This document shows positions 29,895-50,298 of a DNA stretch of 64,000 nucleotides, in pieces. Below the pieces are notes generated by a model, which saw only the letters and a list, made by a program, of their open reading frames with translations, did not search any database and was not told where the DNA came from. The stretch covers positions 558,001-622,000 of the forward strand of contig NZ_AUHA01000003.1 of assembly GCF_000422945.1 (NCBI RefSeq), written 5' to 3'. The DNA is from Daejeonella oryzae DSM 19973. Lineage in GTDB: Bacteria > Bacteroidota > Bacteroidia > Sphingobacteriales > Sphingobacteriaceae. The translations under genes and the position numbers were made by a program. The stretch's first letter is position 1; every line of letters begins with the position of its first letter.

Positions 29895-30410
29895 TTATTT
29901 TTTTATTTGCAGATAGAGTTCAATTTTCAGGTTTTTCCCTATCGCAGGCCCTTTTGTCTGAGTTTGGATGTTAATAGAACGAATGATGCCTACATTATGC
30001 TGGTTTTGAACTCTGCGAATAAATTTTACTATAGAATAGTAGTCTCCTTCAAAATCAATTTTTTGAACGAGAAAATTTTCAGTGCTGTAAAAAGGGTCTA
30101 AAGGGGCAATTTCTAAAAGCTTTAAATTCTCTGCTTCAGCAATTGAAGCAACCTCGCCAATAGATTTGCTTCTAAAAATCAGGGAGTCTACAGAATATTT
30201 TTCCAGAACCTTATCCAGATTTCTACTTTTTCTTAATAAAAAATCCTGCGGCAATGATTCCAATGAATTATTTTTTAGGGTATTTTTTAATTGCTCATTT
30301 GTTTGATAAGCCACAATTGTATTTTTAATTCCAAACTGATAAAATAAAAAGGTTAGAACAACAGCCCCAATAACTAAAAGAATATCTCCCCTATTTTTTA
30401 ATTCCTTCAT
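29895..30410 (-). CDS. GspM/PilO-like assembly platform protein
   Basis: A 171-residue bitopic protein with a short cytosolic N-terminus and one membrane helix (about 10-28). A coiled-coil-like helix (about 30-60) and a ferredoxin-like periplasmic domain containing FEGDYYSIVKFIRRVQ, a hallmark-like segment of PilO/GspM, follow. It is the last gene of the secretion locus, 7 nt after the GspL-like gene. The partners by analogy are GspL and GspC. Assignment rests on topology, the short motif and gene order. Confidence 0.72.
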   Translation of the reverse strand: MKELKNRGDILLVIGAVVLTFLFYQFGIKNTIVAYQTNEQLKNTLKNNSLESLPQDFLLRKSRNLDKVLEKYSVDSLIFRSKSIGEVASIAEAENLKLLEIAPLDPFYSTENFLVQKIDFEGDYYSIVKFIRRVQNQHNVGIIRSINIQTQTKGPAIGKNLKIELYLQIKK

Positions 30411-30417
30411 AATAATG

Positions 30418-31629
30418 CTAGTACTTAATCATTAAAATAAACTTGCCTTTATTTATTTCCTGATCTATGATATAACTTTGAAGCTGAACATTTTTAACCC
30501 ATTCGTATTCACTGATATCTGCAATCCAGTTATTTACCGGAACTATTTTATCTGAAAAACCTGACAAAATAATAGTTCTGTCCAGTAATTTTATAGAGCC
30601 TGAATTTCTGCTTTGTAAAAGATCAACAGGATTAATTTCTAAAGAATTCCATGAAATTTGTTCGGGAAGATTCATTGCCAGCTGATCAATAAAATAGGCT
30701 TTGTCCAAATCGTCATCCCACCCTAACAGTTTAAGATCATTTTCTTTAGTTTCAACAGATTTCTGAATGGTTTTTGTATCCAGGTTGCCATTTGATATTT
30801 GACCCAATTTTGATGAAATAGCCTGATTGGAGGAATTAAGAGACCAAAAGATCAGAAAATTTACAAGCAGAATAATGAAGAAGAATATCAACATTCCCAC
30901 AGCCAGGAATTTTGTTCGTTTATTAGCGGTAATGCTGCGAAGCTGATCTTCAAGATACATTACATGGGCTTCAATGCTTTCTGAGAATCCAGCAAAAACT
31001 GCCTGGAAAGCTGCACTGTAGCTAATTAATAGTTTCTCGTCAATCGGTTCATTTTCCAGCTTCACCGGAAACGGTGACTTTTTATACTCATCATAAGTAT
31101 AGGTTTCCCATTCGTTTTGAATGTTCAGACCTATGACATGTCCATCAAAAATTATTGAATTGTCATATGTGTTTATTTGGGGAAGAATACTATTTACAGG
31201 GAATGGACCTAAACTTAACATTACAGGTATAAAGCCCATATTTTTAATTGAGCTTAACCATTTTTCTGCTTCGGTTTTCCGGATTACAGATACAAATGAG
31301 TGTTTGCCTGAAATAAAATTCTGAATATAAAAGTCGTTGAAAACTGCATTGGGTAAAATTGATTCGAAATTAGATGAGTTTATTTCATCAATTCTATCAA
31401 TTCTTTTATGCAAAATCCCCTTGCCTGTCAGATTAACAGAGAGATAATCTTTTGAAATAAATTCATTATTAAATTCTTCTAAAGTGTTTAAGTCTAAAGC
31501 CTTTTTCTCGAAATCAAGTTGGTTTTTTGAAGTATGAATTTTACAGGCCTGAATAGTTGTTGAATTATCAGAGTTAATTTTAATACTTATACCAATAACT
31601 GTATTTAATCTTAAATACTGTTTTAACAT
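30418..31629 (-). CDS. GspL-like (PilM/PilN-type) assembly platform protein
   Basis: A 403-residue bitopic protein. The cytosolic part of ~240 residues is a degenerate actin-like (PilM/GspL cytoplasmic) domain, followed by a single membrane helix at about 241-263. A periplasmic PilN/GspL-like domain contains FIDQLAMNLPEQISWNSLEI and a ferredoxin-like C-terminus. By family it links the ATPase GspE to the inner-membrane platform. It stands between the secretin and GspM-like genes, as in gspL-gspM order. Sequence divergence is high, so the assignment relies on topology and context. Confidence 0.7.
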   Translation of the reverse strand: MLKQYLRLNTVIGISIKINSDNSTTIQACKIHTSKNQLDFEKKALDLNTLEEFNNEFISKDYLSVNLTGKGILHKRIDRIDEINSSNFESILPNAVFNDFYIQNFISGKHSFVSVIRKTEAEKWLSSIKNMGFIPVMLSLGPFPVNSILPQINTYDNSIIFDGHVIGLNIQNEWETYTYDEYKKSPFPVKLENEPIDEKLLISYSAAFQAVFAGFSESIEAHVMYLEDQLRSITANKRTKFLAVGMLIFFFIILLVNFLIFWSLNSSNQAISSKLGQISNGNLDTKTIQKSVETKENDLKLLGWDDDLDKAYFIDQLAMNLPEQISWNSLEINPVDLLQSRNSGSIKLLDRTIILSGFSDKIVPVNNWIADISEYEWVKNVQLQSYIIDQEINKGKFILMIKY

Positions 31630-31669: not shown

Positions 31670-33595
31670 TTACCGGATAATTGTTGGTTTTATAAATACA
31701 ATGGTCACTACTTTTGAATTAGTTTTGCTCCGGCTGCTGAACAACCATTTTAAAACAGGAATTCGGGATAAAAACGGAGTTCCGGAGCCATCTTCGCTTT
31801 TTTCGGTTCTTTCCAGCCCCCCCAGAACAATCATATCTTCATTTCGGGCTCTGATAATTGATTCAAACTTACTTGTAGAAGTTGGCGGAGGAGCATTATC
31901 GGGTGGAATTCCAATAAAATCAGAAATATCAACTTTTATATTTAAAGTTACCTGATCATCTCCCGAAACAATAGGCCTTATAGAAATGGCAAGGTTTGCT
32001 TCCACTTTATTAAACTGCTCTGTAAAAATACTTTGCGGAGTGGTGAGTGAGGGAAATACATTTTGGGTCCGGGTTACATAATACCTTGTTGAGCCTATAC
32101 TCAATGTAGCCGAATGACCGTTAAGCGTTGATAATTTAGGAACTGACCTTACATCCACATTATTATTTTGTTCGAGAGCGCTCAACCCAACATAAAAATT
32201 AGGGGTTACACGTCCCAGATTTACAGAACCAATACTACCTATTCGGGATAAGAAGTCATTAATAGATCTGGACCCTAACGTATAATCAATCCCGGGCAAA
32301 ATCGTCCCCCCGGTTTTTATACTATCTGAAACTCCGGCTCTGATACCCGTTTTTATATTTCTTATTTTTCGAACATCAATCAGTGTAACCTCAATTAAAA
32401 TCAATGGAACCAGTTGATCTAATTGTTTGATATATGATTCAATCTCTTGTATCTGAGGCCCGGATCCTGAAAGAAGAATTGTATTCTGCTCTCTGAATTC
32501 GCGAATTTCTACTCCATTTCTCCACTCATTAGGAATCATTGCTCTGATTGTATCAATTGATCGGTTCTGTAATTGGATTACCTTATTAGTTCTCAAACCT
32601 TCCAGCTTGCGCTCACCAATTAAATAAATTCCATTTTCCAGCTTATAAGTATAATCCGTTCCCTGGAAAAGAGATCCCAGGAAATTATCGTAAGAAATAT
32701 CTTTAACCCGGGTAGATATAAATCCTTTTATATCTGAATAGAGAAAATAATTTTTATTTACTTCCTGAGATGCCGACCGCACCAGATCAATTATTTGTGC
32801 ATTTGTTGCATCCACAGAAATCAGTTGCTGTCCGCCCGGGACTGTGCGACTGCTAATTCCAATATTACCATCGTTTAAACTATCGGATTTAAAAGTTTTA
32901 CGTACACCTATATTTTTTTCAGAGTTGATATAAACTTCTTCTCCTTCGGCGAGGGATTGAAATATGTACATATTATCACTCGTTTTTACGAGTTTGATAT
33001 TATTAGAAAATGCCAGTTTCTCAAGAACTGTTTCCAGGGAAGCACTGGTGAAAAAACCGCTTACTCGTTTCTCGAACAGGGAGGATGTAATTACAATATT
33101 TTTATTGCTTATCTGAGAAATTCTTCTGGCAACTTTAGAAAGCAGATCATCATTCAGCTCAAGACTTATAGTATTATCAGTAGCATTAAAAGTGGCTTTT
33201 ATTTCATCGGACAAGCCATTTTGTATACCGTTTTGAAGTGGAGTAATAGTAAGAATAGAACCTACAAATGAAATATCTAAATTATATTCTTTAGCCAGAA
33301 ACACTAAAATATTTAAAGCAGTTTCGTTGGTAAAATTATTATAAATCTTAAAATTAAGATTAGGATCAATGTTAATATTGAGTCGGTTAGATTGGGCCAG
33401 GGCTCTTAGAAATTCCTGTACGCTTGCTCCTGTTACAGATAATTGAACTTTTTGGTTTAGTCCGGGAACTGTTTCTGAAAGGTTGTTCAGGCGATCTTGC
33501 AATGCTTCAATCCGATCCTGCTGCTGGGAATAAGCCGGAGAAAAGGACAGAATACTAACAAATAAAAAAATGTTTACAAGGTAGATTCTTATCAT
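31670..33595 (-). CDS. Secretin (GspD/PilQ family outer-membrane channel)
   Basis: The outer-membrane gate of the locus. A signal peptide (about 1-24) and an STN-like N0 domain (FLRALAQSNRLNINIDPNLN) come first. N-domain repeats follow (IQLQNRSIDTIRAMIP, ILLSGSGPQIQEIESYIKQLDQLVPLILIEVTLIDV). The C-terminal secretin barrel (about 400-641) has VPKLSTLNGHSATLSIGS and PFLSRIPVLKWLFSSR before VVTIVFIKPTII. Length (641 aa) suits GspD. It sits between the GspE ATPase and GspL-like genes, with 10-nt spacing to gspE. Confidence 0.9.
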   Translation of the reverse strand: MIRIYLVNIFLFVSILSFSPAYSQQQDRIEALQDRLNNLSETVPGLNQKVQLSVTGASVQEFLRALAQSNRLNINIDPNLNFKIYNNFTNETALNILVFLAKEYNLDISFVGSILTITPLQNGIQNGLSDEIKATFNATDNTISLELNDDLLSKVARRISQISNKNIVITSSLFEKRVSGFFTSASLETVLEKLAFSNNIKLVKTSDNMYIFQSLAEGEEVYINSEKNIGVRKTFKSDSLNDGNIGISSRTVPGGQQLISVDATNAQIIDLVRSASQEVNKNYFLYSDIKGFISTRVKDISYDNFLGSLFQGTDYTYKLENGIYLIGERKLEGLRTNKVIQLQNRSIDTIRAMIPNEWRNGVEIREFREQNTILLSGSGPQIQEIESYIKQLDQLVPLILIEVTLIDVRKIRNIKTGIRAGVSDSIKTGGTILPGIDYTLGSRSINDFLSRIGSIGSVNLGRVTPNFYVGLSALEQNNNVDVRSVPKLSTLNGHSATLSIGSTRYYVTRTQNVFPSLTTPQSIFTEQFNKVEANLAISIRPIVSGDDQVTLNIKVDISDFIGIPPDNAPPPTSTSKFESIIRARNEDMIVLGGLERTEKSEDGSGTPFLSRIPVLKWLFSSRSKTNSKVVTIVFIKPTIIR

Positions 33596-33605: not shown

Positions 33606-35039
33606 TTAATAATTAAACAGCAACGGATAAATTTCTTCTAAAGAGGTTTTTCCCTCTTCAAAAAGAGCAAATGCATTTTCTGCAAGGCTTTTAACTCCTC
33701 TATCTTTTAATATATTTTGAATATACATATTTTCATTCTTGATTTCTAATGCCAGTTCATGGTCTATAGATATCACTTCATAAACTGCTTTTCGTCCCTT
33801 GTATCCGGTGTAAAAACAGTTTTCGCATCCATTGGCCACAAAATGTGATGTAAGATTTTTGTAGGGTTTAAACTGTTTTGGATAGAGATCAGAAGTAAAT
33901 ACCTGATTTGTTTTGCAATGCGGACAAAGTAATCTGATAAGTCTTTGGGCAGCGGTTGTATTTAAGGTACTGGCTACTAAAAACGGCGGAATCTTCATGT
34001 CAATTAAACGGGAAACTGTGCCCCAAGCTGAATTTGTATGAATAGTTGACAAAACCAAATGACCGGTTAAGGCAGCACGAATAGTCATATTAGCGGTTTC
34101 AGTGTCCCGGATTTCTCCAACCATAATCACATCCGGGTCCTGGCGTAAGAATGTTCTTAAGGCGGCAGAAAAGGTAAGACCTATTGACTCTTTCAACTGA
34201 ACCTGGTTAATTCCTTCCAAAGTATATTCAACAGGGTCTTCGATGGTTAAGATATTTCGTGTTTCTTTATTTAATAGTTTTAAAGTGGCATACAATGTAG
34301 TAGTCTTTCCGGATCCGGTGGGACCGCTTAAAAGAATAATACCATTGGGGCGCTTTACACCCTCCAGATAACTATTCATGTCATTAGCAGAAAAGCCAAG
34401 GTTATTGAGATCAATATCTGCGGCATCATTACTAAGCAACCTCAAAACAACTTTCTCGCCATGTAAAGTTGGAAGTACTGAAACACGTATATCAAACTGT
34501 TTATCAGAATGCTTAAAGTTTATCCGGCCATCTTGCGGGAGACGCTTTTCGGCAATATCGAGATTAGACAATATTTTGATTTTATTAATCAGAGCCGGAT
34601 ACTGATCTGAATGCAATAAATATCTTTCAACCATTAAGCCATCAATCCTTATTCTTACCCGGCATCTGCTTTCATATTTTTCGATATGAATATCACTGCT
34701 CTTTAAGCTTTGAGCTTCGCTAATTAAATTTAACAGAAAGTCATCTGCATCATATTGATGGAGTATGTGATTAGCCCTCGAATCAGAATTGTCTTTTATA
34801 TAGTAGGTGGATAATAATTTGGCGATGTGGATATTCGGTATTGGCTCAAGTGCTACGTTAACACCGAGAAGAATTTCAATTTCACCGGATAGATTATTTA
34901 AGTCTGCTGATTCTTCACAATAAAACAAATATTGATTATCGCTTTTATGTTTAGGTAAAATTCGATAATGCCAGGCCTGTTCCCTTGTAATCAAGTGAAT
35001 ATTTTCCGTCAATAGCTTAATATCTCCTTCCAGACTCAT
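33606..35039 (-). CDS. GspE/PilB-type secretion ATPase
   Basis: The cytosolic assembly ATPase of type II secretion/type IV filaments. An N1-like domain is followed by the PAS-like segment SSDIHIEKYESRCRVRIRIDG. Walker A is GPTGSGKT (239-246), the Asp box is near IEDPVEY, and Walker B is DVIMVGEIRD (303-312). The zinc-binding tetracysteine is C372, C375, C405 and C408, typical of GspE/PilB and absent in PilT. No PilT retraction ATPase is in the window, which favours a secretion pseudopilus over a twitching pilus. The start overlaps the prepilin peptidase stop by 4 nt. Confidence 0.93.
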   Translation of the reverse strand: MSLEGDIKLLTENIHLITREQAWHYRILPKHKSDNQYLFYCEESADLNNLSGEIEILLGVNVALEPIPNIHIAKLLSTYYIKDNSDSRANHILHQYDADDFLLNLISEAQSLKSSDIHIEKYESRCRVRIRIDGLMVERYLLHSDQYPALINKIKILSNLDIAEKRLPQDGRINFKHSDKQFDIRVSVLPTLHGEKVVLRLLSNDAADIDLNNLGFSANDMNSYLEGVKRPNGIILLSGPTGSGKTTTLYATLKLLNKETRNILTIEDPVEYTLEGINQVQLKESIGLTFSAALRTFLRQDPDVIMVGEIRDTETANMTIRAALTGHLVLSTIHTNSAWGTVSRLIDMKIPPFLVASTLNTTAAQRLIRLLCPHCKTNQVFTSDLYPKQFKPYKNLTSHFVANGCENCFYTGYKGRKAVYEVISIDHELALEIKNENMYIQNILKDRGVKSLAENAFALFEEGKTSLEEIYPLLFNY

Positions 35040-35552: not shown

Positions 35553-35969
35553 TTAATCAGGAGTTACTTCCCTTAAATTTTTATCCTGGTCTATTTCCCA
35601 AACGTTGTAAGTTCCGTTGCCGTTAAAATCTACCACAGCAGTTGCCCGGGCTACAAATCCAGTATTTGAAGCTTGAACAACTTCAATACGATAATTTGCT
35701 CTTCCATCCTGTCCATCAGTAGTTAATTTTTCCTGAATAAATCCCAGTTCATTAAAGTCGGTACTGTATTTAGATTTTTCATAGAAATAGTTTTTTTCCT
35801 GAGTATGAAGATGCTCCAATTGAACTTTAGCCTCTGTGCTTTTTGCTTTTGTTATTAATGGAAGCAAATTTGGTAAGGCCAACAGAACTAAAATTCCTAT
35901 AATCACCAATACCACTAATATTTCTGTTAGTGTATACCCCGGAATTTTTTTATTGATATTAAACTTCAT
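35553..35969 (-). CDS. Major pseudopilin (GspG-like)
   Basis: A 138-residue class III signal-bearing pilin. The leader MKFNINKKIPG is cleaved before YTLTEILVVLVIIGILVLLA, with the conserved Glu at +5. A long N-terminal helix and a small C-terminal domain follow. The C-terminus contains DFNGNGTYNVWEID, resembling the calcium-binding loop that stabilises GspG proteins; this is inferred from the D-x-N-x-N pattern. It is probably the most abundant subunit of the pseudopilus. It lies between gspF and the prepilin peptidase. Confidence 0.9.
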   Translation of the reverse strand: MKFNINKKIPGYTLTEILVVLVIIGILVLLALPNLLPLITKAKSTEAKVQLEHLHTQEKNYFYEKSKYSTDFNELGFIQEKLTTDGQDGRANYRIEVVQASNTGFVARATAVVDFNGNGTYNVWEIDQDKNLREVTPD

Positions 35970-36036: not shown

Positions 36037-37179
36037 CTAAAAACTATTGCTCATTTTAAATAATGGAAGGTACATTGCTATAAGAATTAAACCTACAATA
36101 ATTCCCAGAAAAATAATGATCAGAGGCTCCATTAAACTGCTAATAGTGGAGGTTTTATATTCAACCTCTTCTATATATTGTTCAGATAATTTTCCGAAAA
36201 AATAATCTAACTGGTTGGTCTCCTCTCCCACTTTAATCAGCATAGCCATTTTAGAGGGATAAATGTCGAATAATTGAAGGCTCTGATTTAAAGATTTGCC
36301 TTTTAAAATATCATCTTCAATTTTAGAAAGAGAATTTTCGATAGGATAATATCCAATCATTTGTTTTGTTAAGCTTATAGCTCTAAGCAATGGTAAGCGT
36401 GCATTTATCAATAAACGCATAGAATTACAAAACCGGGCCAGATATATTTTTTGAACCAAATTCCCTATTACCGGAATTTTTAGAATGATCAGCGATGAAA
36501 TTTTTCTGAACAGAATTGAATTTCGGGAAAAAGAAGTTAATACAGCTATGCAAATAACAAAAAATAAAAAATAGTAAAAGTAGCTTTGCATCCATTCTGA
36601 AAATGCAATAATTTTCGCAGTTATCCAGGGGAGTTCTCCTCCAAATCTTAGAAAAACATCACCAAACATCGGGACTACAAATTTTAGCATAAAAAAAACT
36701 GCGCCTAAGGATGTAGCTAAAACTACAATTGGATACGTAAGTGCCGCAACAATTTTTCTTCTCTGCTTCATTTTATTTTGATAAAATGTTGCCAGATCTG
36801 TCAAAATTTCAATAATCTTTCCAGTTTCTTCTCCAATCTGAATGCTAAAAATTTCATAAAGAGAAAATTTCCCTGATTCCTGCAAAGCTTGCGAAAAGCT
36901 GGATCCATTGAGTACTTTAGATTGAATGGATATCAACAGCTTTTTATCTTTGCTGTTTTTTTGATCTGCTGTTATCAAATCCAGGCTGCTTTTGAGATCA
37001 ATCCCTGCCTCCAGTAATGAACTTAACTCCAGATATAGGTATTCCTTTTTTTTATCACTTAGCTCTTTTCGGCCGAAAGTGATATCCCGATTTAAAAACT
37101 CATTTAAGCCTGGTCGTTCAACCGTTGACTTAGCTTTACGGGCCTTAGGTTCATATCGACTTAAATCAATTGAAGGCAT
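36037..37179 (-). CDS. GspF/PilC-type inner-membrane platform protein
   Basis: A 380-residue polytopic protein with two T2SSF domains (about 45-170 and 245-375). Recognisable segments are FSQALQESGKFSLYEIFSIQIGEETGKIIEILTDLA, membrane helix AALTYPIVVLATSLGAVFFM, KIYLARFCNSMRLLINARLPLL and MLIKVGEETNQLD. The C-terminal membrane helix is LMEPLIIIFLGIIVGLILIAMYLPLF. It overlaps the GspJ-like gene by 14 nt. By family it is turned by GspE to add pilin subunits. Confidence 0.92.
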   Translation of the reverse strand: MPSIDLSRYEPKARKAKSTVERPGLNEFLNRDITFGRKELSDKKKEYLYLELSSLLEAGIDLKSSLDLITADQKNSKDKKLLISIQSKVLNGSSFSQALQESGKFSLYEIFSIQIGEETGKIIEILTDLATFYQNKMKQRRKIVAALTYPIVVLATSLGAVFFMLKFVVPMFGDVFLRFGGELPWITAKIIAFSEWMQSYFYYFLFFVICIAVLTSFSRNSILFRKISSLIILKIPVIGNLVQKIYLARFCNSMRLLINARLPLLRAISLTKQMIGYYPIENSLSKIEDDILKGKSLNQSLQLFDIYPSKMAMLIKVGEETNQLDYFFGKLSEQYIEEVEYKTSTISSLMEPLIIIFLGIIVGLILIAMYLPLFKMSNSF

Positions 37180-37723
37180 GAACTTTTCTGTTTAAAAGAT
37201 TGGAGGAACTGTAGGATTTAAAATATGATAATGGAATTAATTCACCCCTAAAAAGAATGGTCATTTGAATTTTATCAATTCTCTGATTTTCAATACTTTC
37301 TAAATTATTTATTAACTCCATTTCATTAATATTTTGATGCTGAATATATACAGGAGAGGATTCAAAAGAAAATTCCTTCTGACTAACTCTAACTTTAAAG
37401 GTATCAACATCGTTTGATTTTCGTATTATTTCATCCTTATTAATAATGTAAAGGATAGTTTCATTCCTAGTTTTAATTGAAACACCCTGATCTGTTAAAA
37501 CGATTAATTCCGCTTTTGAGAAATCCCGGTTTATGAGTTCATCTGCACGCATAAGTGATGAAAATTCTTGATTTATTACATTAAAATCAAGATAACCTTT
37601 ACTTACTATATTGTAAACTGTATACGCCATCATAATAACAATAGCAGAAATAGCCATAGAAACACTCAGCTCCATTATTGTAAAAGCTTTTACTTTATAT
37701 ATATAGTTTTGATTAGGGCTCAT
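37166..37723 (-). CDS. Minor pseudopilin (GspJ/GspH-like)
   Basis: A 185-residue prepilin. The leader ends KVKA, and the mature N-terminus FTIMELSVSMAISAIVIMMA has Glu at +5, so it should be processed by the A24 peptidase. The C-terminal part is beta-rich, without disulfides. Size and position after GspI suggest GspJ, though GspH is possible. It overlaps both neighbours (11 nt with GspI-like, 14 nt with GspF). Confidence 0.78.
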   Translation of the reverse strand: MSPNQNYIYKVKAFTIMELSVSMAISAIVIMMAYTVYNIVSKGYLDFNVINQEFSSLMRADELINRDFSKAELIVLTDQGVSIKTRNETILYIINKDEIIRKSNDVDTFKVRVSQKEFSFESSPVYIQHQNINEMELINNLESIENQRIDKIQMTILFRGELIPLSYFKSYSSSNLLNRKVHAFN

Positions 37724-38075
37724 AAATCACTTTTCGTATTTCCGCTAATTTTTCCTTATTCTGATTAAATGCTGCTAAATGTATTTCCAGTAAATTTGTG
37801 TGATTTCTGTAAGGACTTATTTTTCTGCTAATTTGAAAATCATTTAAATTAAACGTCTGATTCATTGTTTTGGGCGATTTTTCTGATTGATTCATAAGCT
37901 TATTTAGAGTTTCCTGCGCCTGATATTTTTTAACAGAAAGTGAGGACCTTAAAATATTCGCATAAATCCCCATGGCAATGGTAAAAATCACAACAATTAT
38001 GACCATAGAAATTACAACTTCTATGAGGGTGGAACCCTTAACTTTATAAGTTGATTTTATTTTTATTCCAGCCAT
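37713..38075 (-). CDS. Minor pseudopilin (GspI-like)
   Basis: A 120-residue prepilin with leader ...TYKVKG cleaved before STLIEVVISMVIIVVIFTIA, with Glu at +5. The short soluble domain and position between GspK-like and GspJ-like genes match GspI, the first minor pseudopilin of the tip complex. It overlaps the GspK-like gene by 13 nt and the GspJ-like gene by 11 nt. Confidence 0.77.
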   Translation of the reverse strand: MAGIKIKSTYKVKGSTLIEVVISMVIIVVIFTIAMGIYANILRSSLSVKKYQAQETLNKLMNQSEKSPKTMNQTFNLNDFQISRKISPYRNHTNLLEIHLAAFNQNKEKLAEIRKVIYEP

Positions 38076-39953: not shown

Positions 39954-39989
39954 TTTGAGCTAATTTAGTATTGATTGTAAGCGTAAAGG

Positions 39990-40475: not shown

Positions 40476-40488
40476 GATGCCTGAAATA

Positions 40489-41555: not shown

Positions 41556-42938
41556 TTATTGAATTTCTTTTAAAAGAACATTAAAGTCTTCAATTATACT
41601 ATTATCCTCCCAGACGCTATTATCATAGACTTTAGCTACTCGGCCTTTTTTATCAAATAGGTACAACTGAGTACCATGATTATTTACCAATCCTTTTCCA
41701 TAATTAACAAGTACCCCTAATTCATGTATTAATTCATCATGAACTTTAGTATCCATGGTTAAAAATTTAGAGTTGCCTTCGAAATCAATACCTCTGCTTT
41801 TGCCATAAACACTAATTTGGACTGGTACATCATAAGTTGGTTCCAGAGTTACTCCATAAAGTTCAATTTTATTTTCAAGGCCTTCACTTTTGATATCTTT
41901 TTGAAGTTTCGCCAAATTCTCAATCGTGGAGGAGCACTTTTCCGGGTTATCACATCGGGTATAAAAGAAAGTCATAGCAAATGGTTTTCCTATCGTGTTA
42001 CTAAATTTGAAATCATTACCATTTTGATCTTTTGCTTGAATGTTATTTATCTGTAATTTCCTTTTATCAGAACTTATCCAATATGCAGAAGCGGTTTTTG
42101 ATTCAGCACTGCAACATGTATGAGGATTAATGGAAGATTCCGGCAAAGAAAACTTGGGATAGTTTAATTTAGATAAAATTACATTTTTTGCCAGAACAGC
42201 TTCCTTGTTCAGATTGGAATCAAGAGATAAAAAATACTTTTTATTAATATCCGTAATTTCATTTAAACCTTTAATTGCTAAGTCACTATTAACAGACCCG
42301 ATTTTGGCAAGAGATTTTATTACTTCCCTCCTAACCGAAGTTGGATGTTTTAATGGCCAGTTTAATTCATAATTATCCAGATCAACATAATCATCTTTAT
42401 AAGATTGTGACAGATATTTATTCAGCAAAGGAATTAATTTTACATTATTAATCAATCCAGCTGAGCGAGCTGCTGCTGCTGCTAAATACGGATGATACCC
42501 GAAAGATAATTCAGCAATAACTATGGATTCAATCTTTTCATTTATTCCGATTTCGCTGATTGATGCAAGCATGTATCCTCTTAATCTTTCAACTTCCTTA
42601 GGGCCTCTTCCATTATATATCGGATCATTTTCCATTAATTTTAATGAAACCTGTTCTATTACAGGATGTGAAGATTTACCATATAATTTGAATACATCTA
42701 ATAATCCTGCTATATAATTCTGATCACTTTGGCTATCTGTATTTTTAAATAATTCTAAAGCATAATTCAATTTAGATGTTCCATCCTTATACTTATTTAA
42801 ATGCTTAGAAAGCTCCGGAATTAAAATACTATCCCCATGTATTTTAGAAAATCCAGATATTTTAGCATTCACATTCAGTGAAAAACCGAATGTAGCACAA
42901 CAAATAAGCATTACGCGAAAAAGCTCTTTAATGTCCAT
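41556..42938 (-). CDS. HEAT-like / SCO1-type copper chaperone fusion
   Basis: Numbered from this start, a signal peptide (about 1-25) precedes an alpha-helical HEAT-like region (about 45-260) and a thioredoxin-fold SCO1/SenC domain (about 295-460). The SCO copper site is C329 and C335 (TRCDNPEKC, a Cx5C spacing instead of the usual Cx3C) and H421 in NNHGTQLYLFD. Another CC pair lies at 275-276. By family it delivers copper in the periplasm. It follows the HEAT-like gene by 4 nt and the tyrosinase genes upstream, suggesting it loads copper into them. A start at 42962 would overlap the upstream gene by 20 nt. Confidence 0.83.
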   Translation of the reverse strand: MDIKELFRVMLICCATFGFSLNVNAKISGFSKIHGDSILIPELSKHLNKYKDGTSKLNYALELFKNTDSQSDQNYIAGLLDVFKLYGKSSHPVIEQVSLKLMENDPIYNGRGPKEVERLRGYMLASISEIGINEKIESIVIAELSFGYHPYLAAAAARSAGLINNVKLIPLLNKYLSQSYKDDYVDLDNYELNWPLKHPTSVRREVIKSLAKIGSVNSDLAIKGLNEITDINKKYFLSLDSNLNKEAVLAKNVILSKLNYPKFSLPESSINPHTCCSAESKTASAYWISSDKRKLQINNIQAKDQNGNDFKFSNTIGKPFAMTFFYTRCDNPEKCSSTIENLAKLQKDIKSEGLENKIELYGVTLEPTYDVPVQISVYGKSRGIDFEGNSKFLTMDTKVHDELIHELGVLVNYGKGLVNNHGTQLYLFDKKGRVAKVYDNSVWEDNSIIEDFNVLLKEIQ

Positions 42939-42942
42939 TATC

Positions 42943-43995
42943 TTAAAATTTTGGCTCAACACTTTCTAAATACGCCTTACCTGCCTTTTTAATATTTATG
43001 GATTTACCAGATTCGGCTAATTTTTTAACATTGGTATCAAAAGTATCGGGAGATAATCTCGACTTCCTTTGCTGATTAGATTTTCTTCTATACATTTCCA
43101 TGTATACAGCTGTAACTTTTAAATTCTCAGCTTCTGTGTCATCAATTAACATTTTTTCAGTAACCTTAGAAAACTCAGCAGGGTAACTGGAATTGAGCGT
43201 TCCCATGGCAATCAACCGCATATCGTTCGGTTGTTTCTTGTCTTTTAAAATTGCAATGATTAAATCTTTTGCTGGTAAATAATTACCCAGAATTGTCATA
43301 GCTTCTATTTTAGACTCTTTATTGGGTGGACTTTTAAATACCTTAAAAACGGTTGGTAAGAAATCACCATGCGGATTTAAAGCAAGTAATCGCAATATAT
43401 CAACGGTTGGCAGGAGATCAGATTTTCCTCTATCCAATTGAGTAATCAATAGCCCCTGAGCGAAACTATCTCCATGGGCCATCAAATAATCAAAAGCTAA
43501 ACGTCTGAAATTTATATCCGGATCAGAAGTCAGATTTCTGGCGGTTGTCAAAAATTGCTGATTTTTAGTGAACATGGCAAAGCCGGAAAAGGATAAAATT
43601 TTAAGAGTATTGAGCGATTCAAAACGAAGTTCTTTTGCAGTCGCTTTATCTTCAACCCATTTAAATACAGAGGTAATCAGTTCATCATCATCAGGCATTT
43701 GGTTTATTAGCTTACTTAAACCAGTTGATCTCAAAATAGGATTTGCTGTTGCATTTAAAACAATACTCCTCACTTTTACAATTTGTTGTGGATCGTAAAT
43801 GAAGGGATATTTGGAAATGGCAGAAACACGGGTTGTTACATCATTCTGAGTATTTAAGTATACTTCTACAGCATTAAATACTTCATTTCTGAATGACTGA
43901 ATTTCCTGATTAAGTTTTTCTTTGGTATCCGTTTGCCCGAAGCCCGACAAGCTTATGAACTGAAGTAAGGACAGAATGATTATGAGTTTTTTCAT
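42943..43995 (-). CDS. Secreted HEAT-like repeat protein
   Basis: A signal peptide (MKKLIIILSLLQFISLSGFG-Q) is followed by ~325 residues of helical pairs resembling HEAT/armadillo repeats (LRSTGLSKLINQMPDDDELITSVFKWV, FRRLAFDYLMAHGDSFAQGLLITQL, IEAMTILGNYLPAKDLIIAILKD). No catalytic residues are evident. Similar helical repeats form the first part of the downstream SCO fusion protein, so the two probably work together. It lies 29 nt after the first tyrosinase gene and 4 nt before the SCO fusion. Confidence 0.72.
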   Translation of the reverse strand: MKKLIIILSLLQFISLSGFGQTDTKEKLNQEIQSFRNEVFNAVEVYLNTQNDVTTRVSAISKYPFIYDPQQIVKVRSIVLNATANPILRSTGLSKLINQMPDDDELITSVFKWVEDKATAKELRFESLNTLKILSFSGFAMFTKNQQFLTTARNLTSDPDINFRRLAFDYLMAHGDSFAQGLLITQLDRGKSDLLPTVDILRLLALNPHGDFLPTVFKVFKSPPNKESKIEAMTILGNYLPAKDLIIAILKDKKQPNDMRLIAMGTLNSSYPAEFSKVTEKMLIDDTEAENLKVTAVYMEMYRRKSNQQRKSRLSPDTFDTNVKKLAESGKSINIKKAGKAYLESVEPKF

Positions 43996-44024
43996 GACAT
44001 TAATTTTAATTACTTGTTCATCTA

Positions 44025-45812
44025 TTATTGAAAAGGAATATCATCATAGCAAAAACCTAATCCGCTATTGGTAATTGAAGATAACCTATTGTTTTTATAA
44101 TCAATCATTTGATAAGGTTGTGGAAAACTAGTTGGAGCAGTCGGCAATGAAAGTGTCGAAGGGAAACTTCCACCAGGTGCAGTGGTTGGTCTTACACCAG
44201 GATAAATAGTTCCTGATCCTGTATATGAACCGGTAATTCCATTCCAGGGCCACATAGTATCATTTAAATAATGACCAATATGTATTGTGCCTGAATCAGG
44301 ATATTCACCTTGAGGAGAATATGTGTTAACATCCAAAGGATTAAATAAGCTGTTAGCCCATTGCCATTTGGCCCATAATCTATCAACGTTTGCGTGAACC
44401 AGAAAAAATAGAGGATCCTGAACTGCGGTCTGCAGGGACCTTAGCCAATCACCGGAAACACTCGCTGCCAAATTATGTGCAGTTCCATGAGGATTGCTTT
44501 CCATTGATTTAAATAATGTATAGGTAGATCCTAAAGAAAGAGTTGAAATTTCACTTCTTATTGTAGTTGAACCTGTAGATGGATCAGCGTTATCTGCAAA
44601 ACTAGTTGTCCGCCTGATACCTATTCCTCCAGCCATATTCCAAACACTCATTGGATTACTACTATAAAAATCAGCAAATGCATCGGTAGAAGTCAAAGGC
44701 TTACTTCCCATAAAATCTCCTGAAAAAACCGATGGTGCGGCTACATCAAATTTCCAGTATGGTAAAGCGACTCCAGGATCAACAGCTTGTAATTTTCTTT
44801 CGAGATTTAATACAAAAGCCCTATGCCATGGAAGAAAACCAGGGCCATTATGACCTTCCGGAATACCGGGTCTTGTATGCATCTCAACAAATGTCATAAA
44901 TTCATTATTCGAATTATTCAGGGTGACTATAGCATTCAAAAATCTCTCTCTTTCTAAAACAGATAAATTATTTGCATTCTTTCGAACTCTAACCATAAGT
45001 GCTTCTCTGGAATATATTGCACCATTACTTGGGTTTAGTATTTCAATAACTGCATCTTTATCCGTTACACTAGGGTTATTAAATCTGCCTGCAATAAAAA
45101 AATTTACCCAAGTACCGGAATTTGGAAGTGATAAATTTAATGTGGTATTACTTGCAGTTGAATTAATGGCGAGATCACTGTTTGTAAAATTTACTTTTCC
45201 GGTAGAATTACTCATGTTTCTTAACTGCACACTAATTGATGAAGAAAAGCTAGAATAATTTGCCAGTCGAATGCTGCAAAACGTAGGTGACCATGTAACA
45301 TAATCATCTAAGGTAGATGCAGAGTTAATTTTTATTTCAATTCGTGGTGAAGTTGATGGTAAAGGAGTTGAAGGTATTACCATAAAGGCTTTTCTTGCCA
45401 AAACAGAATGATTGAATCCACTTCTATCATCAAGAACTTCTACAGCTGCATCCTTATCAATTTTACTGTTAATATTGTCACGGCATTTAATGTAAAATGT
45501 TTTAGATAGATTATCCCGAGTAAGAGTAAGATCTAATGAAATACTGCCCCTCGACTTTCCTCCAGTTGAAGAAAATGTAACTCTACCACCATTTGTTAAA
45601 CTCATATTTCTAAGAGTAACCGGAATATTCGATGTAAAACTTGTTCCGTTAATTAGGCCAATCGTGCATTTAATGTATTTTGAACCTATATAATCATCCT
45701 TTGAAGTTTCAGTTGAATTAATTTGAACTGAAATAACCGGTATTTCCTGAGCTACAATATTCGTGGCTGAATGAAATAAAATCATCGAAGTTATAAATAA
45801 CAGTAATTTCAT
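44025..45812 (-). CDS. Secreted tyrosinase-family copper protein (paralogue 1)
   Basis: A type-3 copper protein that by family oxidises phenols or catechols with O2. From the chosen start it has a signal peptide (about 1-22), then two homologous ~125-residue beta-rich repeats, each with DDY, a C-x-I region, LRNM and DKDA(V/A)EV. The tyrosinase domain follows from about 280. CuA ligands are H312, H321 and H330 (EMH, GHNGPGF, WHR); CuB ligands are H442, H446 and H473 (NPHGTAH, LVHANVDRLWAKW). It ends GLGFCYDDIPFQ like its paralogues, and no T9SS sorting domain was seen. An in-frame ATG at 45845 adds 11 polar residues. Confidence 0.9.
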   Translation of the reverse strand: MKLLLFITSMILFHSATNIVAQEIPVISVQINSTETSKDDYIGSKYIKCTIGLINGTSFTSNIPVTLRNMSLTNGGRVTFSSTGGKSRGSISLDLTLTRDNLSKTFYIKCRDNINSKIDKDAAVEVLDDRSGFNHSVLARKAFMVIPSTPLPSTSPRIEIKINSASTLDDYVTWSPTFCSIRLANYSSFSSSISVQLRNMSNSTGKVNFTNSDLAINSTASNTTLNLSLPNSGTWVNFFIAGRFNNPSVTDKDAVIEILNPSNGAIYSREALMVRVRKNANNLSVLERERFLNAIVTLNNSNNEFMTFVEMHTRPGIPEGHNGPGFLPWHRAFVLNLERKLQAVDPGVALPYWKFDVAAPSVFSGDFMGSKPLTSTDAFADFYSSNPMSVWNMAGGIGIRRTTSFADNADPSTGSTTIRSEISTLSLGSTYTLFKSMESNPHGTAHNLAASVSGDWLRSLQTAVQDPLFFLVHANVDRLWAKWQWANSLFNPLDVNTYSPQGEYPDSGTIHIGHYLNDTMWPWNGITGSYTGSGTIYPGVRPTTAPGGSFPSTLSLPTAPTSFPQPYQMIDYKNNRLSSITNSGLGFCYDDIPFQ

Positions 45813-45968
45813 TTTCTTAGAATTAATGACCATTAATGAACACATACCAATCTGCCTATAATTGTTGTCCTCTATTAATTGTTAAAAATCCAATTGCTAT
45901 GTATACTTAGAATTATAGCTATATATGATTAAGAGTAAATAATACATTGTGCAAATTTTTTATATTAA

Positions 45969-48182
45969 TTATTGAAAAGGTACGTCATCATAGCAAAAAC
46001 CTAATCCACTATTAATTGAAGTGATTGTACTTACATTTCTATAGTTTATCATATCAAAAGGTTTGGGGTTTGCCACCGGAGCTAAAGGATAAGATAAAGC
46101 ATTTGGAAATGCTCCACCAGGAGCTGTAGTAGGTCTGTTACCGGACAATACTGTTCCAGATCCAGTATAAGTTCCTGTAATCCCGTTCCAGGGCCACATT
46201 GTATCATTTAAATAATGACCTATATGTATGGTTCCCGAACCAGGATAAGATCCTAACCTGGAATAAGTCAAAGTACTCTGAGTATCAAAACGATTGTTGA
46301 TCCATTGCCATTTTGCCCAAAGCCGATCCACATTGCTATGTAAAAGAAAGAATATTGGATCCTTTACTGCAGTAGCAACCGATCTCATCCAATCACCGGA
46401 TACTCCCCCAGTTAGATTATGCAGGCTACCATGCGGATTAATTTCCAAAGCCCTGAAAGCTTCGTAATTTGTTCCCAATGCTAATGTAGAAACTTCATTT
46501 CTTAACGTTGATTGCGCACTTGAAGGAGCAGCATCATTATTAAAGGAAGTTGATCTTCTAATCCCTGGGCCTCCCTCCACATTCCACTCGTTCAAAGGAT
46601 TATTAATATTAAAATCTACAAATGCATCCGCTGATGTTATAGGTTTAGAACCCAAAAAATCAAGCGAAAAGATATTAGGGGCTGGATTGCCCGATTCCCA
46701 ATACGGTAGAGTTACCCCCGGATCAATAGTTTGGAATTCTCTTTCCAGATCTAAGATATATGCCCGATGCCAGGCTAAAAAACCTGGGCCGTTATGTTCT
46801 TCCGGATTCCCAGCTTTACTGTGGATGTCAATAAAGTTTTTATACCCATTAAACGTATTATTAAAAGTTACAAAAGCATTTAATAAACGTTGTCGCTCCT
46901 CTGCTGAAATATTATTTGCATTCTTTCTTACCCTAACCATTAATCCTTCTCTTGAAAGTATTTTTGATCCTGCTAACAATGTATCCCGGTTGGTAATTAT
47001 AGTATCGGTAATTGCATATAATGAATCTCTGATAGTTATAATAGTGTCTCTTAAAGCTATAATACTATCTCTTAACGAGGTAACAGTATCCATTACGGTA
47101 ATAATTGTCCCTCTTACTGAAATAAAAGTATCGCGAACTGCTATAACTGTTCCTTTTATTGCAATCAATAAGTCAGTTCCAGTAATGGTTGTATCTCTGG
47201 TAATATTCGCAGAATTCAGAGTTTCCCTGATTGAAACAACTGTATCGCGAACCGTTATTAATTGCTCGATCGGTGTAATGGTAGTATCCATAATTGAAAT
47301 AATACTATCCCTCTGCACAAAGCTTGTATCTGGCTTTGAAACGGTTGTATCTCTTTGAATTATGGATGTATCAGTTATAGTTGTTAAAACTCCACCACTA
47401 CCACTAATAACTTCTATCACAGCATCTTTATCTCTTAAACTCGCATTATTAAACTTCCCGGCAATATAAAAATTAACCCAGGTGCCCGAATTTGGAAGAG
47501 AAAGTTCTAAAATAGAGTCTGTTGCAGTTGTGTTATTTGCTAAGCTCGATGAAGCAAAATTAATTTTCCCTGTAGAACCTGTCATATTGCTCAATTTGAC
47601 TGAAACAGGTGAAGTAAATTCAGCATGATTTGTTAATCTGATACTACACAAAGTGGGCGACCAGGTGACGTAGTCGTCCAATGTAGAAGCGGAGTTAATT
47701 TGAATTTCTACATTAGGAAGCGTACTTGGAAGTATTTCATTTTGGGTAACCATTAATGCTTTTCTTCCCAATACAATTAAATTGGAAGTAATACGGGTAT
47801 CGCAAACTTCAATTATGGCATCTTTATCAATTAAACTTGGATTTTCAACTTTACCCTTTACATAAAAAGTAGTAAAACTGTTATCCTGATTAATTATTAA
47901 ATCTAAGGTTGAAGATCCGGGACTGGTTCCACCTGTTGAAGAAAAGACTAACTGGCCTCCGCCACTGAATGGAATGTTTCTTAATAAAACCGGAATATTT
48001 TGATTTATTTGGGAACCATTAAACATTCTTATGGAACATTCGATGTAATTATTGCTTGACGCATAATCGTCCTTGGAAGTCTGGGTATTATTTATCCGTA
48101 TCTCTAATATTGGAATTTCCTGAGAAAAAAGATTACTACATATCCCAATTATAAAGCAAACTATTAAACCAATCTTTTTCAT
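45969..48182 (-). CDS. Secreted tyrosinase-family copper protein with heptad-repeat insert (paralogue 2)
   Basis: The same architecture as its neighbours: signal peptide (about 1-20), two beta-rich repeats (about 22-145 and 156-262) and a tyrosinase domain (about 410-737). CuA ligands are H454, H463 and H472; CuB ligands are H584, H588 and H615. It is ~130 residues longer because residues ~265-405 hold tandem heptads of the type RDTIITI / RDSIIAL between the second repeat and the tyrosinase domain. These may form an extended stalk. Ends GLGFCYDDVPFQ. Its relatives on both sides lack the insert. Confidence 0.9.
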   Translation of the reverse strand: MKKIGLIVCFIIGICSNLFSQEIPILEIRINNTQTSKDDYASSNNYIECSIRMFNGSQINQNIPVLLRNIPFSGGGQLVFSSTGGTSPGSSTLDLIINQDNSFTTFYVKGKVENPSLIDKDAIIEVCDTRITSNLIVLGRKALMVTQNEILPSTLPNVEIQINSASTLDDYVTWSPTLCSIRLTNHAEFTSPVSVKLSNMTGSTGKINFASSSLANNTTATDSILELSLPNSGTWVNFYIAGKFNNASLRDKDAVIEVISGSGGVLTTITDTSIIQRDTTVSKPDTSFVQRDSIISIMDTTITPIEQLITVRDTVVSIRETLNSANITRDTTITGTDLLIAIKGTVIAVRDTFISVRGTIITVMDTVTSLRDSIIALRDTIITIRDSLYAITDTIITNRDTLLAGSKILSREGLMVRVRKNANNISAEERQRLLNAFVTFNNTFNGYKNFIDIHSKAGNPEEHNGPGFLAWHRAYILDLEREFQTIDPGVTLPYWESGNPAPNIFSLDFLGSKPITSADAFVDFNINNPLNEWNVEGGPGIRRSTSFNNDAAPSSAQSTLRNEVSTLALGTNYEAFRALEINPHGSLHNLTGGVSGDWMRSVATAVKDPIFFLLHSNVDRLWAKWQWINNRFDTQSTLTYSRLGSYPGSGTIHIGHYLNDTMWPWNGITGTYTGSGTVLSGNRPTTAPGGAFPNALSYPLAPVANPKPFDMINYRNVSTITSINSGLGFCYDDVPFQ
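46968..47390 (-). repeat. Imperfect 21-bp tandem repeats encoding heptads
   Basis: About twenty degenerate 21-bp units within the second tyrosinase gene encode heptads with the pattern (R/x)-D-(T/S)-hydrophobic-I-x-hydrophobic. The units are diverged at DNA level but in phase. The region also leaves a long open frame on the opposite strand, a by-product of the periodic sequence. Confidence 0.85.
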
Positions 48183-48513
48183 GATTAAATATTTTTTAGA
48201 TATTAATAACAGAAGAAGAATTCTTTAATAATGAATCAGTTCGGAAACCTTTCAAAATTCTGGATTTGATGCGAACTAGCTAATTATTGTTATTGAGGAG
48301 AGATTCTTGAACACAATTCAAACACACAGGATTATAAAAAGATTAATTAGAACTCAAATCAAATTGTAAAGTGTATTTTAATAACAACACAATTCCTTTT
48401 CGGTATCTAATTTACAAAATCGAACTTTACCATTAATTAAAGATTTTAGATTGATAGTTTATTTTACATATTTCACACTTGCTACACAATTATGATGCAA
48501 TCAGCTCCAATTG
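48183..48513. other. 331-bp gene-free gap between two tyrosinase genes
   Basis: AT-rich DNA between the third and second tyrosinase genes. I found no open frame of note, no terminator hairpin with T-run, no tRNA and no TAnnTTTG element in a convincing position. It may hold an independent promoter for the second tyrosinase gene, but none can be pinpointed. Confidence 0.5.
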
Positions 48514-50298
48514 TTATTGGAATGGAACATCATCATAGCAAAATCCTAAACCTGCATTTGTTGAAGAAATAGATCTGTTGTTCCTATAATCAATCATATT
48601 AAATAACTGAGGCTTTTCAGGTGGACTATTCGTATAAAATATAGCTTCTGGGAAAATTCCTCCGGGGGCAGTTGTAGGACGCTGATTTATAGGAGCTGTT
48701 CCGGATCCTGTAAATGTGCCGGTTATCCCATTCCAGGGCCACATAGAATCGTTCAAATAATGCCCGATATGAATTGTTCCTGAATTAGGGAAAGACCCTT
48801 GCGGAGAATAAGTTAGAGGATTTTGAGAATCAAAACGGGTATTTAAGACCTGCCATTTGGCCCATAGCCTGTCTAAATTAGTATGCAGAAAGAAGAACAA
48901 TGGATCTTTAACCGCTGCCGCTAAAATCGACATCCAGTCACCCGTTACTCCACCTGCAAGGACATGTGAAGCTGCATGCGGATTAGGGTCAATTGCTTTA
49001 AATAAATTAAAATCATTTCCTAATGCTAAAGCTGCAGTTTCCTTACGAAGATTAACATTTACTGTGGAGGGACTGGCATTATTTGCAAATTTAGTAGTCC
49101 TTCTAACTCCTGGTCCACCGGGTACATTCCATGCTATTAATGGATTAGTTAAATTAAAATCGGCGAATGCATCAGTAGAAACTGTGGGCTTTGAACCTAA
49201 AAAATCAAGTGAAAATATATTTGGAGCCGGATTATCTGAATTCCAGTATAAAAGAGCTACACTGGGATCAATACGTTGTAATTCACGTTCAAGATCAAAA
49301 ATGAAAGCACGATGCCAGGGTAAAAATCCAGGTCCTGAATGACCTTCAGGTACGCCTGCTTTATCATGTATATTAATAAAATTAAGATACCCATTAAATG
49401 TATTGTTAAAAGTTACGATTGCATTCAGATAACGGTTTCTTTCTTCCTCAGAAATGTTATTACCATTTTTTCTAACTCTAACCATCAGGGCCTCTCGTGT
49501 TAAAATAGTATCGGTGTTTGCCTTTAACACTTCAATAACTGCATCTTTATCTTTTAGGCTTGGACTACCAAATTTTCCGGCTATATAAAATTTCACCCAG
49601 GTCCCTGAGTTTGGCAGGCTTAAATTTAATGTAGGATTTACTGCCGTACTATTATTAGGTAAAGTGCTAGATGCAAAATTAAGCTTACCTTTTGAAACGA
49701 GCATATTGCGTAATGAAACATTTAAGTTCCCTACAGTAGTACCAGATCCCAGTACTCTAATTAAACATGTGGTTGGTGACCAGGTTACATAATCATCAAT
49801 GGAACTTACAGAACCCAATATCATTTCTATTCTTAATGGAGAAACCGGTAATGGTTTTATGGCTGTAACCATTAGGGCTTTACGTGCTAAAATAATACCA
49901 TTTGAATTAGAAGCATTTCCTAGCACCTCAATAACAGCATCCTTATCAATCAAGCTGTTAAAACCTGTCCTTGCTTTAATAAAAAATTTAGTAACGGTAT
50001 TATCTTTTTTAACAGTCAGGTTTATACTTTCTGATCCGGTACTTGTACCTCCCGTGCTTGAAAGCAGAAACTTTCCACCGGAGCCAAATTGAATGTTTCT
50101 AATCACAACCGGCAGATCAGTGCTAAAACTGGTTCCGTTGAAAAGTCTTATATCACAGGTTACATATGAAGTACCTACATAATCATCCTTTGCTGTTTCT
50201 GAACTATTAATACGAATGCCAATCACAGGGATAGGTTGTGCAGATAATGATTGAACTAAAATTACAGCTACAATCATAATAGATAAAAACCTTGTCAT
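48514..50298 (-). CDS. Secreted tyrosinase-family copper protein (paralogue 3)
   Basis: The first gene of the minus-strand run. Signal peptide (about 1-20, ending SLSA-Q), two beta-rich repeats (about 22-143 and 155-258) and a tyrosinase domain. CuA ligands are H311, H320 and H329; CuB ligands are H441, H445 and H472. The repeat hallmarks DDYV, LRN, LPNSGTWVKFYIAGKF and DKDAVIEV are present. Ends GLGFCYDDVPFQ. All six ligands are intact, so it should bind a dicopper centre. The substrate is unknown: tyrosine in proteins, small phenols or polymers are all possible. Confidence 0.9.
   Translation of the reverse strand: MTRFLSIMIVAVILVQSLSAQPIPVIGIRINSSETAKDDYVGTSYVTCDIRLFNGTSFSTDLPVVIRNIQFGSGGKFLLSSTGGTSTGSESINLTVKKDNTVTKFFIKARTGFNSLIDKDAVIEVLGNASNSNGIILARKALMVTAIKPLPVSPLRIEMILGSVSSIDDYVTWSPTTCLIRVLGSGTTVGNLNVSLRNMLVSKGKLNFASSTLPNNSTAVNPTLNLSLPNSGTWVKFYIAGKFGSPSLKDKDAVIEVLKANTDTILTREALMVRVRKNGNNISEEERNRYLNAIVTFNNTFNGYLNFINIHDKAGVPEGHSGPGFLPWHRAFIFDLERELQRIDPSVALLYWNSDNPAPNIFSLDFLGSKPTVSTDAFADFNLTNPLIAWNVPGGPGVRRTTKFANNASPSTVNVNLRKETAALALGNDFNLFKAIDPNPHAASHVLAGGVTGDWMSILAAAVKDPLFFFLHTNLDRLWAKWQVLNTRFDSQNPLTYSPQGSFPNSGTIHIGHYLNDSMWPWNGITGTFTGSGTAPINQRPTTAPGGIFPEAIFYTNSPPEKPQLFNMIDYRNNRSISSTNAGLGFCYDDVPFQ

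What the first reader, a model, noticed from the sequence alone, without database searches (positions are those of the whole stretch)
29895..50298. Candidate system: a type II secretion-like locus fused in context to three tyrosinases and a SCO copper chaperone
Eighteen consecutive minus-strand genes combine a nearly complete Gsp-type machine (C, D, E, F, G, I, J, K, L, M and prepilin peptidase homologues) with a HEAT-SCO copper chaperone, a HEAT-like protein and three secreted tyrosinases. Known T2SSs export folded proteins from the periplasm, which suits enzymes that must be loaded with copper first. I infer that SCO metallates the tyrosinases and the Gsp machine exports them. The absence of a visible T9SS sorting domain on the tyrosinases leaves their export route open and supports this idea. 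I do not know of a described system of this kind in Bacteroidota.
Basis: partly seen in the sequence, partly recalled or inferred. Interest (0 to 1): 0.8.

Follow-up and report, generated by a model that had tools for sequence, protein, structure and literature searches.

The report
Copper oxidases beside a secretion machine
A Bacteroidota genome carries one gene block that joins a type II-like secretion machine to three exported copper oxidases and their likely copper loader; the same block is found in a second genus, but the machine's usual partners in relatives are giant RHS-repeat proteins, which gives a testable idea of what this poorly understood machine exports.

Summary
In detail: 18 minus-strand genes (29895-50298) make a T2SS-like machine (D, E, F, G, O, minor pilins, C/K/L/M-like genes) preceded by HEAT-SCO, HEAT and three exported tyrosinases with all six copper ligands.

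For it: the block (tyrosinase-HEAT-SCO-13-gene core) recurs with other flanks in Desertivirga xinjiangensis, tightly packed; SCO and GspE of the two genomes are sisters. Tyrosinase-HEAT-SCO is a module of several phyla that elsewhere mostly lacks signal peptides; here its proteins have them.

Against it: the link is rare. In 250 genomes of the order tyrosinases are independent of GspE (5 of 77 against 8 of 173) and linked only in the window's genome; five other Bacteroidota with the module show no GspE. The machine's usual partners are RHS (DUF6443) proteins: 75 of 77 GspE+ genomes against 22 of 173, with an ORF within about 10 kb of GspE in 28 of 61 loci. The window's genome has one too, on another contig.

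Best reading: a Cytophaga-type 'T2SS' with exchangeable neighbouring cargo that captured a copper-oxidase module in one lineage. Such machines are described; the tyrosinase coupling and the RHS link were not found in the papers searched.

The parts
48514..50298 (-). Tyrosinase 1 (594 aa): Sec-like leader, two beta domains, tyrosinase domain
   Evidence: PF00264 4.9e-28; hydrophobic 1-21; alignment A1; model, mean pLDDT 72
45969..48182 (-). Tyrosinase 2 (737 aa), with a low-complexity RDT-rich insertion between the beta domains and the enzyme
   Evidence: PF00264 1.8e-33; insertion seen in A1; hydrophobic 2-21
44025..45845 (-). Tyrosinase 3 (606 aa; probable start at Met 11, leader judged by eye)
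   Evidence: PF00264 1.3e-29
42943..43995 (-). HEAT-like exported protein of the tyrosinase module
   Evidence: HEAT_2 below cut-off; hydrophobic 3-20; relatives beside tyrosinases elsewhere
41556..42962 (-). HEAT-SCO copper chaperone (probable start at Met 9, leader judged by eye)
   Evidence: PF02630 4.4e-12; C337, C343 and H429 invariant in 15 of 15
40489..41436 (-). FN3-like protein with lipobox-like N-terminus, first gene of the machine core
   Evidence: Ig_Rha78A_N just under cut-off; conserved in relatives
39990..40475 (-). GspC/PilP-like by position, one N-terminal hydrophobic segment
   Evidence: conserved family A4; no PDB profile hit
39375..39953 (-). MORN-repeat protein of the core with a leader-like N-terminus
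   Evidence: MORN_2 below cut-off; conserved order
38063..39316 (-). GspK-position protein (417 aa), hydrophobic N-terminus
   Evidence: conserved family A5; no PDB profile hit
37713..38075 (-). minor pilin, GspI position
   Evidence: N_methyl 5e-05, over cut-off
37166..37723 (-). minor pilin, GspJ-like
   Evidence: N_methyl 7.2e-05, over cut-off; TIGR01711 1.3e-4, below cut-off
36037..37179 (-). GspF/PilC platform protein
   Evidence: PF00482 2e-44
35553..35969 (-). major pilin/pseudopilin (G position); PilA-Myxo 66 bits, GspG 40.8 bits
35036..35551 (-). small prepilin peptidase candidate (QD, GxGD)
   Evidence: alignment A6
33606..35039 (-). assembly ATPase, GspE/PilB type; only strong PF00437 match of the genome
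   Evidence: PF00437 1.9e-125
31670..33595 (-). secretin
   Evidence: PF00263 3.9e-35, STN
30418..31629 (-). GspL-like: one hydrophobic segment at 238-267, PilN-like end
   Evidence: PilN E 0.033, below cut-off
29895..30410 (-). GspM/PilO-like
   Evidence: PilO E 0.026

Best explanation
Two modules have been joined into one block. The 13 genes FN3-C-MORN-K-I-J-F-G-O-E-D-L-M are the Cytophaga-type 'T2SS' of Bacteroidota: an ATPase-driven pseudopilus that pushes folded periplasmic proteins through a secretin (mechanism taken from T2SS knowledge, inferred here). The five upstream genes are a tyrosinase-HEAT-SCO copper-oxidase module which in most of the other loci seen lacks signal peptides and has no such machine beside it. 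In this lineage its proteins carry Sec leaders and the module sits at the head of the machine's gene row. Proposed working: Sec exports apo-tyrosinases, HEAT and HEAT-SCO; HEAT-SCO hands copper to the six-His site (inferred from conserved linkage and Cys/His residues); the folded enzymes leave through the secretin to oxidise phenols outside (inferred). The machine is not dedicated to them: across the family its usual partners are RHS/DUF6443 proteins, often encoded beside it.
For: Core order conserved in relatives. Block intact in Desertivirga with other flanks and very short gaps; GspE sisters 0.96, SCO sisters 99/96. Module conserved without the machine, and mostly without leaders (also L109). 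Leaders here (tyrosinase 3 and SCO by eye), no T9SS tail listed. SCO Cys/Cys/His 15 of 15; tyrosinase His 19 of 19. RHS link.
Against: Only two genomes, one evolutionary event, show the coupling. Tyrosinase and GspE are independent across the order (p 0.55). The module is also exported in Chitinophagaceae UBA4407, where no GspE was found (a MAG whose completeness was not told). No shared export signal was found: the beta domain occurs in module tyrosinases only, apart from one weak unidentified hit (E 4.8e-4) in G068. No experiment.
Confidence: 0.5

Rival explanations
1. Neighbours only: the machine exports RHS-type proteins, in this genome too, and the tyrosinases act in the periplasm or leave by another route; the block is kept by co-transfer or shared regulation.
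For: RHS association far stronger than any tyrosinase association; the window's genome has a DUF6443 protein at C1:1570176; module exported without a GspE found in UBA4407; 119-bp gap between SCO and FN3 here.
Against: In Desertivirga the SCO-FN3 gap is 2 to about 38 bp and no DUF6443 protein was found at E 1e-5; the block stayed together while its proteins fell to 36-88% identity and both flanks changed.
Confidence: 0.35
2. The machine is a type IV-pilus-like appendage (adhesion or surface display), not a secretion system.
For: Denise et al. 2019 (PMC6668835, passages seen) place the Bacteroidetes 'T2SS' with T4aP; the G-position pilin scores higher with PilA (66 against 40.8 bits), and D and E score about equally with GspD/MshL and GspE/PilB.
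Against: PF00437 would also find PilT, and the window's genome has one strong match only, so no retraction ATPase was seen; the same paper calls the system one involved in protein secretion; t2s mutants of C. [quoted passage not shown]
Confidence: 0.15

Closest known systems
Putative T2SS of Cytophaga hutchinsonii chu_3191-3202 and Pedobacter heparinus Phep_1100-1112 (PMC5553014)
   Same: Same kind of machine; in C. hutchinsonii the same order platform genes-D-E-O-G-F-minor pilins; divergent C/L/M
   Different: No tyrosinase, HEAT or SCO genes named in the sections read; in P. heparinus F and the minor pilins lie apart from D-E-O-G by locus number
Type II secretion system, proteobacterial Gsp
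   Same: Secretin, ATPase, platform, major and minor pilins, prepilin peptidase; no PilT seen
   Different: D, E, F, G below NCBIfam Gsp cut-offs; reported to branch with T4aP (PMC6668835, passages)
Streptomyces tyrosinase with caddie protein (PMC9454253, passages)
   Same: Partner gene beside a tyrosinase for copper loading
   Different: SCO-type and HEAT-like proteins instead of a caddie; beta domains on the enzyme; Sec-like leader here
RHS/DUF6443 proteins of Bacteroidota
   Same: Lie beside the same machine in relatives; leader-like N-termini in the examples printed
   Different: Giant RHS proteins with variable C-terminal ends, not copper enzymes

Membership tests
Type II secretion system (Gsp) | Secretin, GspE-type ATPase, GspF platform, N-methylated pilins, prepilin peptidase in one locus | tested here: met
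   (peptidase by motif only)
Type II secretion system (Gsp) | D, E, F, G reach NCBIfam equivalog cut-offs | tested here: not met
   120.4 of 351; 478 of 630; 245 of 424; 40.8 of 88.9 bits
Type II secretion system (Gsp) | No PilT-type retraction ATPase | tested here: met
   one strong PF00437 match in G000
Type II secretion system (Gsp) | Branches with T2SS in phylogeny | not tested
   PMC6668835 reports that the Bacteroidetes system does not
Cytophaga-type Bacteroidota T2SS | Gene order D-E-O-G-F with adjoining platform and minor pilin genes | tested here: met
   window order against section 19 and Table 2 of PMC5553014
Tyrosinase (type 3 copper) | Pfam over cut-off and six copper His | tested here: met
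SCO copper chaperone | SCO1-SenC over cut-off with two Cys and one His | tested here: met
   Cys spacing is CX5C, not the CX3C recalled for SCO1
T9SS substrate | C-terminal sorting domain | tested here: not met
   no such family listed for the tyrosinases at E up to 1
Caddie (MelC1) tyrosinase operon | caddie gene beside the tyrosinase | tested here: not met
   no caddie family listed for the eight genes 39375-50298
T2SS substrate | secretion lost in a secretin mutant | not testable with these tools
   experiment needed

The most novel reading that the evidence does not exclude
The Bacteroidota 'T2SS' is a T4aP-derived secretion system of its own whose standard clients are secreted RHS/DUF6443 proteins with exchangeable C-terminal ends, encoded in a variable cargo slot beside the machine; in the window's lineage that slot was taken by a formerly cytoplasmic copper-oxidase module that was given signal peptides.
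Probability: 0.4. Interest if true: 0.8.

Novelty: new variant of a known kind. Interest (0 to 1): 0.62.

Why it matters
What the T2SS-like machine of Bacteroidota exports is largely unknown, and one survey (PMC6668835, passages) raises the possibility that it is a novel secretion system derived from type IV pili. Its close company with RHS proteins in the order, and the copper-oxidase module captured here, name concrete candidate clients that one secretin deletion and a secretome could test. The tyrosinase-HEAT-SCO module also points to SCO-type copper loading of tyrosinases in several phyla.

Tried and rejected
Rejected: T9SS export (no sorting domain listed). Rejected: the beta domain as a general export tag; in 126 genomes it hit only module tyrosinases (6 copies in G000, 1 in G040) plus one weak unidentified match in G068. 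Rejected: foreign base composition as evidence of transfer; G+C over the block is 31-37%, much like its surroundings (33-38%). Led nowhere: PDB profile searches for C, K, L and O; promoter scan (90 promoter-like sites against 92 expected) and a Bacteroidota-type promoter pattern (2 against 4.7 expected); terminator-like sites were 18 against 10.5 expected and were not followed. The PDB fold search of the tyrosinase model (mean pLDDT 72) finds tyrosinases best, at TM up to about 0.58 of the target; for the beta domains it lists RbmA, peptidylarginine deiminases and integrins at weak TM, no clear relative. The tree used a wrong row for Desertivirga (a GspD piece instead of GspE) and was replaced by a smaller one. 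The second structure job was not used.
Full report
What is there. The window lies in a 3.4-Mb genome, 99.5% complete; I did not name the organism. Desertivirga xinjiangensis and Pedobacter caeni, both listed as Sphingobacteriaceae, carry related loci. Pfam confirms secretin, ATPase, platform protein, three N-methylated pilins, SCO and three tyrosinases over cut-off. The prepilin peptidase rests on conserved QD and GxGD in 18 relatives. C, K, L and M rest on position, topology and weak PilN and PilO signals; HEAT labels rest on hits below cut-off. GspH was not found.

Where the machine ends. I fetched 60 loci (20 kb or less each) from 60 of the 76 other GspE-bearing genomes of the order sample and added Desertivirga. 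The 16 genomes left out either had GspE near a contig start, only pieces of it, or were simply beyond the three calls spent. By tblastn, G, O and E are in 61 of 61, D and L in 59, F in 27, M in 26, K, I and FN3 in 19 (in five of these FN3 lies downstream of L), J in 17, C and MORN in 14; much of the first half lies outside the stretches or elsewhere in the genome. In the 14 loci with C and MORN the order FN3-C-MORN-K-I-J-F is the same; in 10 it runs on into G-O-E, in 4 it is inverted against it. So FN3 and MORN belong to the machine, and the five genes above them do not: HEAT, SCO and the tyrosinases were found in 1 of 61 loci, Desertivirga.

The tyrosinase module. A scan of the genome collection with the tyrosinases gave 18 loci (records of the window's own genome may be left out). 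By tblastn SCO lies beside the tyrosinase in 15 and HEAT in 11, in Pseudomonadota, Bacteroidota and Acidobacteriota, in the order tyrosinase-HEAT-SCO; in P. caeni and an Amazon MAG tyrosinase and HEAT are in one frame. None of the other 17 loci shows the window's machine genes in its flanks (up to 10 kb). All six copper His are invariant in 19 of 19 sequences, two Cys and one His of SCO in 15 of 15. For the tyrosinase no hydrophobic leader is possible in L006-L009, L011, L013 and L015-L017; L010, L012 and L014 are unclear, L019 is masked there, and L018 has a leader but no HEAT or SCO. HEAT and SCO of these loci likewise start without a leader where the match reaches near the N-terminus. G040, of the window's family, has the module, also without a leader (L109), and no GspE match. 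Window and Desertivirga proteins have Sec-like leaders; UBA4407 has an apparent lipoprotein form. Leaders were judged by hydropathy and by eye; no predictor was available.

The link with the machine. Desertivirga carries tyrosinase-HEAT-SCO-FN3-...-M in one row with gaps of -4 to 25 bp from tyrosinase to K (ORFs opened at the first start codon except HEAT, so the SCO-FN3 gap is 2 to about 38 bp). Its flanks are sugar- and lactate-type genes on one side and, beyond a few genes, ribosomal genes on the other; the window has HtpG and citrate synthase (names by eye). GspE of both are sisters (0.96, FastTree, 26 rows), SCO too (99/96); the tyrosinases of both form a group at 84/98. Identities run from 36% (J) to 88% (G), tyrosinase 51%. 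This is one event kept through long divergence, not two.

Against a general rule. In 250 genomes of the order, PF00264 at E 1e-10 marks 13 and GspE (PF00437, E 1e-50 or better) 77; both occur in five, close together only in the window's genome (Fisher p 0.55). Three of the other four were read and their tyrosinases have no HEAT or SCO beside them (L105-L107); G198 was not read. Of 11 genomes of the scan searched for PF00437 (10 with the module), UBA4407, P. caeni, the Amazon MAG and Marinoscillum have no match at E 1e-10. In Bacteroidota that makes 2 exported modules with GspE, 1 exported without, 4 or 5 without leader and without GspE: suggestive, far too few for a test. In the window's genus 1 of 20 genomes has GspE, the window's own. 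In 345 genomes of the phylum only the window's genome matched the full tyrosinase profile at E 1e-15, and of 60 relatives of Desertivirga, itself included, two had the SCO profile: Desertivirga and one with the contig and place of G040.

What the machine goes with. Beside it in relatives lie RHS-like proteins and small secreted proteins with a GIGTxxP motif: single-linkage BLAST clusters in 40, 32 and 25 of 61 loci. Of eight representatives, two hit RHS_repeat over cut-off, one of them also DUF6443; two more hit RHS_repeat below cut-off; the four small ones hit nothing telling. DUF6443 is present in 75 of 77 GspE+ and 22 of 173 GspE- genomes of the order (p 7e-41, not corrected for kinship). 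Among the genus g2 rows listed it is 10 of 11 against 2 of 44. A DUF6443 ORF lies in 28 of 61 loci, all within 10.3 kb of GspE, about 24 per Mb, against very roughly 0.7 per Mb from 3.9 copies per GspE+ genome (genome size taken as about 5 Mb). In 340 genomes of the phylum, 19 of 30 with a strong GspE/PilB-type ATPase (E 1e-115 or better) have it, against 26 of 310; in 12 of the 19 it lies within 20 kb of the ATPase. Two of the 30 are also in the order sample. Against exclusivity: seven genomes of family f3 carry 2 to 8 copies without such an ATPase, and 11 of the 30 have the ATPase without DUF6443. The 27 long RHS proteins share their body and differ over about 215 residues at the C-terminus (median over 351 pairs), as polymorphic toxins do (recalled). 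The window's genome has one such protein, with another large protein with a leader before it, on another contig; in Desertivirga none was found.

Known or new. A putative T2SS of this kind is described for C. hutchinsonii, P. heparinus and others, with mutants affected in cellulose use (PMC5553014; abstract, sections 19 and 24 read). Denise et al. (PMC6668835; passages) report that it clusters with T4aP and may be a novel secretion system. Searches for tyrosinase with T2SS in Bacteroidetes or Pedobacter, for RHS with T2SS, for DUF6443 and for SCO with tyrosinase listed no paper whose title or abstract start showed either link; only open-licence papers are held, lists were capped, and of them I opened passages of PMC6769254, PMC9454253, PMC5808330 and PMC5524665. 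PMC5808330 mentions clone-specific T2SS genes in F. psychrophilum; PMC5524665 a partial T2SS and one RHS protein in F. columnare, without linking them in the passages seen. PMC4793230 was seen in passages only.

Verdict. The block is real and kept in two genera. Copper loading by SCO is likely; export of the tyrosinases by the machine is an even bet; the stronger and wider result is the company of this machine with RHS proteins.

Noticed in passing
61 T2SS-like loci, e.g. L060:4116-7637, L046, L049, L065: RHS/DUF6443 proteins and small GIGTxxP secreted proteins flank the T2SS-like machine in relatives; DUF6443 is present in 75 of 77 GspE+ genomes of the order sample.
   Followed up: partly
L103:6430-13340 (G000:C1 near 1570176): The window's genome carries a pair of large proteins with leader-like N-termini, the second with DUF6443, on another contig than its machine.
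   Followed up: partly
L104:7152-10430 (G000:C2:126681-127307): A fourth tyrosinase of another type in a 1092-aa frame without an evident signal peptide.
   Followed up: no
window 40489-41436: FN3-like protein with a lipobox-like N-terminus heads the conserved machine core; it could serve as a secretin-assisting lipoprotein.
   Followed up: no
window 45969-48182: Tyrosinase 2 holds a long RDT-rich low-complexity insertion; the Desertivirga enzyme seems to have a shorter one at the same place.
   Followed up: no
genus g1 (20 genomes): Only the window's genome has GspE; DUF6443 and tyrosinase are also missing in the seven other g1 genomes of the order sample.
   Followed up: partly
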